NCBI GenBank assembly: GCA_016177845.1
Contig: JACOUO010000017.1
Coordinates: 124,001 to 188,000 of the forward strand
Length of the DNA stretch: 64,000 nucleotides
DNA from: Deltaproteobacteria bacterium
GTDB lineage: Bacteria > Desulfobacterota > GWC2-55-46
Direction: 5' to 3'
The stretch's first letter is position 1. Each line of letters begins with the position of its first letter. The position numbers were made by a program, and so were the translations under genes. The notes under the pieces are model-generated. The model made no database searches, had not been told where the DNA came from, and worked only from the letters and a program-made list of their open reading frames with translations. Below, one piece after another: positions 47,569 through 50,117 of the stretch.

Positions 47569-48804
47569 ATGACAGGTAAAAGGCTTTATCTTCTGTCGAT
47601 TCTGACGGCTCTGGCTATCTCGCTTGCCCCCGGATTGTCCGAAGCCAAAGTAAGCGTGCAATGCCCGGGCGATGTCAACGGCGACGCTATCCCTGACCAG
47701 TTCATAGGCAATCAGCCTAATCCTGAATTCAGGCCAAATGTCAAATGCAGGCATCTGACCGCAGGCGACGGCTTCATTAAGATGGGAGATGGAAGCCCCA
47801 TGTACACCTTTGGATTTAAGGATGTAACTGGCACGCCTGTTGACCAGGTCATGAGCGTAGGCATGCTTGGGGCGAATTTCCCTGCGCCTACCATAGCGGT
47901 GGATGAGGGCGATGAGTTCTACCTTACGCTTACAAATGTGGGGATGATGATGAGGCCGGACCTGTTCGACCCGCACAGCGTCCATTGGCACGGGTTTCCG
48001 CAGGCAGCGTCAATCTTTGACGGAGTGCCTGAGGCCTCGGTAGCCATCAACATGGGCTCAAGCCTTACATACTATTACAATGTGGTTGAGCCGGGCACAT
48101 TCATGTACCACTGTCATGTAGAGGCTACTGAGCACATGCAGATGGGCATGCTCGGTAATCTTTATGTGCGGCCCAAGCAGGACAAGCTGCCGAATAATAC
48201 CAATTTAAACGGCTTCATCCATAATACAGGCTTTAAATACGCATACAACGACGGGGACGGCTCCACATATTACGATGTCGATTATCCTATTCAGCTTGGT
48301 TCGCTCGACCCTGTGTTCCATGACGCAAGCCTCAATATCCAGCCCCTTCCGTTCACGCTTATGAAGGATAAATATGCAGTCATTAACGGCAGGGGATACC
48401 CTGACACAGTGAACCCGAATTCGCTTGTGCCTCCGGCTGAGAATAACGGCCAGAACTCCCAGAATGTAAGTTCGCTCATTACTGCCGCAAGGGGGCAGAA
48501 GATACTGCTGAGGCTTTCGAACCTGAGCGTCACAAGGTTCTACACGATAGCGACAACAGGGCTTCCCATGAAGATGGTGGGGCTTAACGCGAAACATTTG
48601 AAAGGCTCGGCAGGGCAGAACCTCTATTATAATACCGGCTCGATTACGCTCGGTGGCGGTGAATCAGCGGATGTGATAATCGATACCGCAAACCTTCAGC
48701 CGGGCTCTTACTTTTTATACACCACGAACCTTAATTATCTCAATAACAATGAAGAGGACTTCGGCGGCATGATGACCGAGATAATAATCAACCCGGCAGC
48801 TTAG
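47569..48804 (+). CDS. two-cupredoxin multicopper oxidase-like protein with type 1 Cu motif in domain 1
   Basis: HSVHWHG (aa 136-142) and YHCHVEATEHMQMGM (aa 180-194); signal peptide ending LSEA. Confidence 0.85.
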   Translation: MTGKRLYLLSILTALAISLAPGLSEAKVSVQCPGDVNGDAIPDQFIGNQPNPEFRPNVKCRHLTAGDGFIKMGDGSPMYTFGFKDVTGTPVDQVMSVGMLGANFPAPTIAVDEGDEFYLTLTNVGMMMRPDLFDPHSVHWHGFPQAASIFDGVPEASVAINMGSSLTYYYNVVEPGTFMYHCHVEATEHMQMGMLGNLYVRPKQDKLPNNTNLNGFIHNTGFKYAYNDGDGSTYYDVDYPIQLGSLDPVFHDASLNIQPLPFTLMKDKYAVINGRGYPDTVNPNSLVPPAENNGQNSQNVSSLITAARGQKILLRLSNLSVTRFYTIATTGLPMKMVGLNAKHLKGSAGQNLYYNTGSITLGGGESADVIIDTANLQPGSYFLYTTNLNYLNNNEEDFGGMMTEIIINPAA

Positions 48805-48818
48805 CCAGGAGGATTGCG

Positions 48819-50117
48819 ATGAAAAAAATCAAAGTCTTGATAAGCAGCTCAATTTTCATGATGCTCTTCCTGTTCTATGCCGCGGGCGCACAGGCCATGA
48901 TCGATGGGGTAGGGGGGACGACATTTAACCTCACCGCAAAAGAGGGAAGGATCTCAACCGCCGACGGCAACAGTATCTATGCGTGGGGATATGCCAATGG
49001 CAATGGAGCGATGCAGTATCCCGGGGTCACGATGATAGTAAATCAGGGAGATGCAGTAACCGTAAACCTTACTAACCAGCTCCCGATACCTGTATCCATT
49101 GTCTTTCCGGGACAAAAAGATGTGGCAGCCATAGGCGGCTCAGCAGGGCTCCTTACACGGGAAGCGGCCACAGGCCAGACCGTAAAATACACATTTGTAG
49201 CTTCTGAGCCCGGCACTTACATATATTACAGCGGCTCAAGGCCTGAGCTTCAGGTGGAAATGGGGCTCGTAGGGGCTATTATCGTGCGCCCTCAAAACTA
49301 CGACCCGAATATGCCGAGGGCTTATAACCATGCGGGCTCGGAGTATGACCGTGAGACATTATTTCTTCTAACGGAGATGGATTCAAGAATACATGAGACT
49401 GTAGAATTCCTTGGAGTAGCGGGTTTAAATACCACAGACTACCTTTCAAATTATTTTCCGAATTACTGGTTCATTAACGGCAGGACCGCGCCTGATACAA
49501 TGGCGCCTTCATTTGCCGCATGGTTTCCCACACAGCCGTATAACAGCATGCCGATAATGCACCCCGGTGAGAGGCTTTTGATGAGGGTTGTTAACGCGGG
49601 CAGGGACCTCCATCCATTCCACCATCACGGAAATCACGCAAGGGTAATCGCATGGGACGGGAAGCTCCTCGAGAGCGCAGCCGGAGCAGGGCCTGATATC
49701 GGCCCGTCTGTATTTACCATCCAATCAGTTCCCGGCACGACTGCCGATGCCATCTTTGAATGGACAGGCAAAGGGCTTGGCTGGGACATATACGGGAGCG
49801 CGCCGCATGCGTGTATTGACACTAACGCGGACGGCTTTGACGATGCATCGAAAGAATATTGCCCTGACCACGGAAAGCCTTTCCCCGTGGTGCTGCCTGA
49901 TATCGGCGACCTTACGGTCGGAGGGTTCTACGGCGGAAGCCCATTTCTCGGCACGCCTGACCTGCTTCCTCCGGGCCAGGGCGGCATGAACCCGAACGCA
50001 GGGTATGTTTACATGTGGCATTCGCACACTGAGAAGGAGATGACTAACTTTGACATATTCCCCGGCGGCATGATGACAATGCTCATTATAGAAGCCCCCA
50101 CTGTGCCTATCCAATAG
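48819..50117 (+). CDS. two-cupredoxin multicopper oxidase-like protein lacking the type 1 Cys
   Basis: HPFHHHG (aa 265-271) and MWHSHTEKEMTNFDIFPGGM (aa 399-418); signal peptide ending AQA. Confidence 0.82.
   Translation: MKKIKVLISSSIFMMLFLFYAAGAQAMIDGVGGTTFNLTAKEGRISTADGNSIYAWGYANGNGAMQYPGVTMIVNQGDAVTVNLTNQLPIPVSIVFPGQKDVAAIGGSAGLLTREAATGQTVKYTFVASEPGTYIYYSGSRPELQVEMGLVGAIIVRPQNYDPNMPRAYNHAGSEYDRETLFLLTEMDSRIHETVEFLGVAGLNTTDYLSNYFPNYWFINGRTAPDTMAPSFAAWFPTQPYNSMPIMHPGERLLMRVVNAGRDLHPFHHHGNHARVIAWDGKLLESAAGAGPDIGPSVFTIQSVPGTTADAIFEWTGKGLGWDIYGSAPHACIDTNADGFDDASKEYCPDHGKPFPVVLPDIGDLTVGGFYGGSPFLGTPDLLPPGQGGMNPNAGYVYMWHSHTEKEMTNFDIFPGGMMTMLIIEAPTVPIQ

What the first reader, a model, noticed from the sequence alone, without database searches (positions are those of the whole stretch)
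47569..50117. Split multicopper oxidase: two adjacent genes carry complementary halves of one active site
Seen directly: the 411-aa protein has HSVHWHG and YHCHVEATEHMQMGM in domain 1, giving all type 1 Cu ligands (H136, C182, H189, M194) plus four trinuclear-cluster His (H139, H141, H181, H183); its domain 2 has no His motif. The 432-aa protein has no Cu motif in domain 1 but domain 2 has HPFHHHG (H268, H270) and WHSH (H401, H403), giving the other four trinuclear His, with Cys replaced by Ser and the type 1 His/Met pattern lost. Established: two-domain MCOs form the trinuclear cluster between domain 1 of one subunit and domain 2 of its neighbour. Inference: neither product can be a complete oxidase alone, and together they have exactly eight cluster His plus one type 1 site, so the enzyme is probably an obligate heteromer.
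Basis: partly seen in the sequence, partly recalled or inferred. Interest (0 to 1): 0.9.

Follow-up and report, generated by a model that had tools for sequence, protein, structure and literature searches.

The report
Multicopper oxidase split between two genes
Two neighbouring bacterial genes each carry half of the copper active site of one oxygen-using enzyme, and in every genome checked they occur together with a third related gene, so the enzyme is very probably assembled from different proteins that cannot work alone.

Summary
Protein A (411 aa) has a complete type 1 copper site and four trinuclear-cluster histidines in domain 1 and none in domain 2; protein B (432 aa) has only the other four, in domain 2. 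The partition is fixed: 120/120 A homologues, all B homologues, and every intact row of 82 loci from many phyla. Of 398 genomes of the phylum, 16 have A, the same 16 have B, always adjacent. C, the 895-aa protein, begins with two copper-blind cupredoxin domains, follows B in every locus long enough to show it, and occurs in the same 16 genomes; in many species it is only those two domains. AlphaFold2 on an A-B-C pseudo-chain gives pTM 0.84, and fold comparisons argue against ceruloplasmin's chain order. Best explanation: an A:B:C heterotrimer of six cupredoxin domains with one active site between A domain 1 and B domain 2, an unfused counterpart of six-domain oxidases. A distant second family (A'/B') splits its site the same way. 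The gene cluster type is known from iron oxidisers (Slit_1816-1818, magnetite-induced), but I found no description of a split active site. Not shown: stoichiometry, activity, substrate. No coordinates were available.

The parts
47569..48804 (+). A: two-domain cupredoxin protein, 411 aa; domain 1 holds the whole type 1 Cu site plus four trinuclear-cluster His, domain 2 blank
47974..47994 (+). A domain 1 motif H136-SV-H139-W-H141-G (T1 His + two cluster His)
48109..48150 (+). A domain 1 motif H181-C182-H183-VEATE-H189-MQMG-M194 (two cluster His + T1 Cys/His/Met)
48819..50117 (+). B: two-domain cupredoxin protein, 432 aa; domain 1 blank, domain 2 holds the other four cluster His, Ser402 at the T1 Cys position
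49611..49631 (+). B domain 2 motif H265-PF-H268-H-H270-G
50016..50027 (+). B domain 2 motif W-H401-S402-H403
50133..52820 (+). C: 895 aa; N-terminal two cupredoxin domains without copper ligands (about residues 33-335), then tandem Big_9/cadherin-like repeats; proposed third subunit
42383..47437 (+). D: 1684-aa secreted protein (SdrD_B-like, PL4 fn3_3-like, choice-of-anchor Q matches); upstream of A in all 64 loci of the window's type with room to show it, fused to A in 5 of them; in 2 plasmid relatives a D-like part is fused to C
52863..53315 (+). 150-aa predicted lipoprotein of no Pfam family, homologue just after C in 56 loci
53337..55049 (+). S8 (subtilisin-type) protease, homologue within 3 kb downstream of C in 39 loci; possible maturation protease (inference)

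Best explanation
A, B and C are three two-domain cupredoxin proteins that assemble as a ring-shaped heterotrimer (six cupredoxin domains). A single oxygen-reducing trinuclear cluster forms between domain 1 of A (four His) and domain 2 of B (four His); the only type 1 copper, in domain 1 of A, takes electrons from the donor and passes them through the H181-C182-H183 bridge to the cluster, where O2 becomes water. C completes the ring without copper and, in the window, carries an adhesin-like tail; D joins the assembly at the cell surface. It is a triplicated, two-thirds-silenced, unfused counterpart of the six-domain oxidases. Shown: ligand partition, its conservation, and strict co-occurrence and order of A, B, C. 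Predicted: three-subunit assembly. Inferred: 1:1:1 stoichiometry, copper loading, O2 chemistry, surface location, a metal or mineral substrate.
For: Ligand partition without exception. B domain-2 motifs align to the cluster motifs of solved type C two-domain oxidases; A's best PDB matches are the same enzymes. A, B and C present in exactly the same 16 of 398 genomes, in 17 places always contiguous. A then B in 82/82 loci across Myxococcota, Thermodesulfobacteriota, Pseudomonadota, Acidobacteriota, Nitrospirota, Planctomycetota and others; the five without C end within or just after B. D beside or fused to A; D-like part fused to C elsewhere. AlphaFold2 of the A-B-C pseudo-chain: pLDDT 80.7, pTM 0.84; A-B alone pTM 0.77. 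Foldseek matches all six domains to ceruloplasmin, factor V/VIII and MnxG in order at E 1e-37 to 1e-50, but TM is only 0.2 at about 34 A rmsd, so the subunits are not in ceruloplasmin's chain order; of the two cyclic orders of a ring this leaves A-C-B, the one placing B domain 2 against A domain 1. A Thermus laccase reaches TMt 0.68-0.72 over a 769-column alignment, too short to run from A domain 1 to C domain 2. The genome encodes haem-copper oxidases and a bd-type match, so O2 use is plausible.
Against: No coordinates were returned, so the geometry of the eight His was not measured. The models are of relatives (L034, L004), joined by reading through stop codons, with 38-row alignments; a covalent link can bias contacts. 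Low TM in chain order also fits a non-ring arrangement. The distant A'/B' family appears to manage without a C gene. No biochemistry exists; stoichiometry is inferred.
Confidence: 0.72

Rival explanations
1. A and B alone form the oxidase (A/B heterodimer, A2B, AB2 or (AB)n ring), and C is only an accessory anchor that binds it.
For: The eight His need only A and B. The distant A'/B' family has the same partition with just two adjacent genes, in the same 11 of 348 genomes. AB alone models with pTM 0.77.
Against: C is as strictly conserved as B, in the same 16 genomes and next to B, even as a bare two-cupredoxin protein; ABC models more confidently than AB (0.84 against 0.77). Strict A/B alternation cannot close a three-membered ring.
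Confidence: 0.2
2. A and B form separate homotrimers: A is a blue-copper electron carrier or NirK-like enzyme, B a copper-binding scaffold.
For: Two-domain oxidases and NirK are normally homotrimers; A has a complete T1 site and B keeps His pairs.
Against: A domain 2 has no His to complete either a NirK type 2 site or a trinuclear cluster; B has no T1 Cys; the halves are exactly complementary and never found apart.
Confidence: 0.06
3. The proteins are structural, surface-layer or copper-storage cupredoxins with no oxidase turnover, the His pairs serving copper binding only.
For: Large adhesin-like partners C and D; no activity has been reported for the magnetite-induced relatives (PMC12016527).
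Against: Complete retention of all T1 and cluster ligands in every row, including H-C-H, which a storage role would not require.
Confidence: 0.05

Closest known systems
Type C two-domain multicopper oxidases (Nitrosomonas europaea 3g5w, mgLAC 2zwn)
   Same: A: T1 and four cluster His in domain 1, best PDB matches; B: domain-2 cluster motifs align to theirs; cluster between domain 1 of one subunit and domain 2 of the next (two-domain oxidases, PMC13151041)
   Different: Those are homotrimers with all ligands in one chain and three active sites; here the ligands lie on two different chains, one site per proposed trimer
Six-domain oxidases (ceruloplasmin, MnxG, MofA/OmpB group)
   Same: Six cupredoxin domains, one trinuclear cluster, other interfaces blank (PMC3600357)
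   Different: One chain there, three here; T1 in domain 1 of A rather than an even-numbered domain; subunits not in ceruloplasmin's chain order in the model
Sideroxydans lithotrophicus Slit_1816-1818 cluster (PMC5566968, PMC12016527) and its Paraburkholderia/Ralstonia relatives
   Same: Three tandem cupredoxin genes, two with MCO motifs, the third larger with adhesin and polysaccharide-lyase-like domains; Paraburkholderia, Ralstonia and Cupriavidus replicons carry A and B homologues side by side (about 40% identical), followed in the two I opened by C joined to a D-like part
   Different: The papers call both proteins 'canonical'; the split site and trimer are not mentioned. I did not align the Slit sequences themselves
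MnxEFG manganese oxidase complex
   Same: A multi-protein multicopper oxidase
   Different: MnxG is the oxidase subunit; MnxE/F are small accessory proteins without similarity to characterised proteins (PMC5622069)

Membership tests
Type C two-domain MCO | T1 Cu ligands (His, Cys, His, Met) in N-terminal domain | tested here: met
   A 83/83; not met by B, which has Ser for Cys
Type C two-domain MCO | both halves of the trinuclear cluster in the same polypeptide | tested here: not met
   A has only the domain-1 half, B only the domain-2 half
Type C two-domain MCO | homotrimer | not testable with these tools
   heterotrimer proposed from co-occurrence and pseudo-chain models
Six-domain MCO (ceruloplasmin/MnxG) | six cupredoxin domains in one chain | tested here: not met
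   three separate genes in the window; none of the 82 loci shows an A-B fusion
Six-domain MCO (ceruloplasmin/MnxG) | subunit-equivalents arranged in chain order around the ring | tested here: not met
   domain-by-domain match E to 6e-46 (rat ceruloplasmin) but TM 0.21-0.23, rmsd 34 A; model-based
Slit_1816-1818-type cupredoxin cluster | three tandem cupredoxin genes, two with MCO motifs, third large with adhesin domains | tested here: met
   window 47569-52820
Slit_1816-1818-type cupredoxin cluster | SCO1/SenC and a cytochrome gene in the cluster | tested here: inconclusive
   SCO1/SenC family in 12 and a one-haem c-type cytochrome family in 15 of the fetched loci; not seen next to the genes in the window
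Slit_1816-1818-type cupredoxin cluster | sequence homology to the Slit proteins | not tested
   Slit sequences not fetched; inferred through Paraburkholderia/Ralstonia relatives named in PMC12016527
NirK copper nitrite reductase | type 2 Cu completed by a His of domain 2 | tested here: not met
   A domain 2 has no conserved His except H251 near its start

The most novel reading that the evidence does not exclude
Bacteria use an asymmetric heterotrimeric multicopper oxidase, built by triplication of a two-domain enzyme with two of three active sites erased but the genes never fused: a living form of the intermediate postulated between homotrimeric two-domain and single-chain six-domain oxidases. 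The same split may have arisen independently in the A'/B' family, and the D-A-B-C complex may act on minerals at the cell surface.
Probability: 0.5. Interest if true: 0.85.

Novelty: new variant of a known kind. Interest (0 to 1): 0.78.

Why it matters
Multicopper oxidases are textbook enzymes whose active site is carried by a single kind of polypeptide. A widespread family (a capped search scored 8,000 candidates for A and 7,974 passed E 0.001, though that count includes general MCO relatives) in which the site exists only when different gene products meet would be a new architecture, would fill a gap in the accepted evolutionary scheme from two-domain to six-domain proteins, and would explain why such genes expressed singly would be inactive. 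It also gives a testable enzyme for magnetite-induced cupredoxin clusters of iron oxidisers.

Tried and rejected
First alignment for folding (A4) mixed single-protein rows with fused rows and misplaced B and C rows onto A; replaced by A5. One alignment call failed on reading frame. Profile A1 found nothing in PDB at 1e-20 (threshold too strict). Host taxonomy left open: 16S fragment 91% to 'uncultured bacterium BACT1' and about 80% to Myxococcota and Nitrospirota genomes. Considered and rejected: sequencing frameshift or pseudogene (both genes intact, conserved in many phyla); A as NirK; A-B-C as a plain unfused ceruloplasmin (T1 is in the wrong domain, model order differs). Tree of A, B, C, A', B' and complete oxidases: each group coherent, B and C sisters (100/97), deeper order weak (87/80, 87/81, 84/63), so one or two origins of the split is unresolved. 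Literature terms for split or heteromeric MCO: no papers in the held library, which lacks most subscription journals.

Full report
OBSERVATION. A (47569-48804) matches Cu-oxidase_3 at its first domain and weakly Cu-oxidase at its second; B (48819-50117) likewise has two cupredoxin-type halves. A's best solved relatives are the two-domain oxidases 3g5w and 2zwn. Profile alignment of the B family to 3g5w places B's GRDLHPFHHHGNH on GDHVHAIHTHGHI and B's YMWHSHTEKEMTN on WMIHDHVDTHTTN, the domain-2 halves of the trinuclear cluster. In current usage T1 in domain 1 is type C (PMC13151041).

CONSERVATION. In 83 A rows all eight A ligands are 83/83; in B the four cluster His and H265 are present in every row that is not gapped there, and S402 is invariant; C has none of the ligands. 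The nearest 120 homologues of each agree. A then B, in that order, occurs in 82/82 loci from outside; C follows in all but five, which are contigs that end within or just after B. In 398 genomes of the window's phylum A, B and C occur in the same 16, contiguous in all 17 places, never apart. The other same-family and same-order genomes in that sample lack them, which suggests horizontal transfer.

A THIRD AND A FOURTH PARTNER. C's first ~335 residues are two cupredoxin domains homologous to B (hhalign E 1e-49) and free of copper ligands; in many species C is only that. D, 1684 aa, lies directly upstream of A in all loci of this type with at least 2.5 kb upstream, 64 of 64, and in L055, L057, L065, L076 and L081 D and A are one reading frame. 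In the two plasmid-borne relatives opened (Cupriavidus L083, Paraburkholderia L084) a D-like part (about 32% identical) is fused to C instead (these two bring that call's tally to 66). Such fusions are classical evidence for one complex. A 150-aa lipoprotein (56 loci) and an S8 protease (39 loci) follow C. SCO1/SenC, NosL and a one-haem cytochrome occur near some copies.

STRUCTURE. Because heteromers cannot be submitted, I used loci where A, B and C share a frame and read through the stop codons. L034 A-B-C (1160 aa): pLDDT 80.7, pTM 0.84. L004 A-B (821 aa): 80.7, 0.77. A pTM of 0.84 over three linked subunits means their mutual placement is confidently predicted. Foldseek finds ceruloplasmin, factors V and VIII and MnxG across all six domains, yet TM in chain order is ~0.2 with ~34 A rmsd; for A-B it is 0.29 with ~16 A. 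So neighbours in gene order are not neighbours in ceruloplasmin's sense. In a three-membered ring the remaining order, A-C-B, sets B domain 2 against A domain 1, which is what the ligands demand. I saw no coordinates; this is inference.

MECHANISM. Electrons enter at T1 in A and cross to the cluster through the HCH bridge (established MCO chemistry), where O2 is reduced; without B the cluster has half its ligands. In two-domain trimers with the T1 described in PMC13151041 the T1 faces the central tunnel; whether this holds for a T1 in domain 1 was not checked, but if it does, B and C could shape access to the single T1 (inference). The host encodes terminal oxidases. A candidate extracellular electron conduit lies just upstream: a 351-aa membrane protein with two WX3HX13H motifs, the signature of PCC3/PCC4 inner-membrane proteins in PMC5566968, a 44-haem cytochrome and a barrel-like protein. 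The Slit_1816-1818 proteins rise on magnetite (PMC12016527). Substrate therefore leans to Fe(II) or Mn(II), unproven.

A SECOND SPLIT FAMILY. Elsewhere (L117, L119, L120, L136-L146) two other adjacent genes show the same partition in reverse gene order: B' with HxxHxH and H[D/S/C]H only in domain 2, A' with HTIHWHG and YHCHxN only in domain 1. In 348 genomes both occur in the same 11. They are distant from A and B; origin unresolved.

KNOWN OR NEW. The three-gene cluster was noted in 2017 as 'three tandem MCO-coding genes' (PMC5566968) and in 2025 as magnetite-induced (PMC12016527, which calls two of them canonical). The split site, the heterotrimer and the second family were not found in the held literature. 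Verdict: a real, widespread and apparently undescribed variant of multicopper oxidase.

Noticed in passing
35967-41457: Probable extracellular electron conduit on the same strand just upstream: 351-aa membrane protein with two WX3HX13H motifs, a 1025-aa cytochrome with 44 CXXCH motifs, and a 419-aa barrel-like protein, like PCC3/PCC4 clusters.
   Followed up: partly
L117, L119, L120, L136-L146: A second, divergent family of split two-domain oxidases (B' then A') with the same ligand partition, in the same 11 of 348 genomes.
   Followed up: partly
L055, L057, L065, L076, L081; L083, L084: Protein D is fused to A in five genomes, and a D-like part is fused to C in two Burkholderiales replicons.
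   Followed up: partly
52863-53315: Conserved 150-aa predicted lipoprotein with no Pfam or NCBIfam match, just after C in 56 loci.
   Followed up: partly
53337-55049: S8 protease with a MopE-type motif conserved downstream of C; possibly a maturation protease, as OzpA is for OmcZ (recalled, not tested).
   Followed up: no
A H251, B H192, C H202: A near-invariant His in a Dxx(F/I/L)H motif near the start of domain 2 is shared by all three subunits and is Trp in a complete type C oxidase (P0243); role unknown.
   Followed up: no
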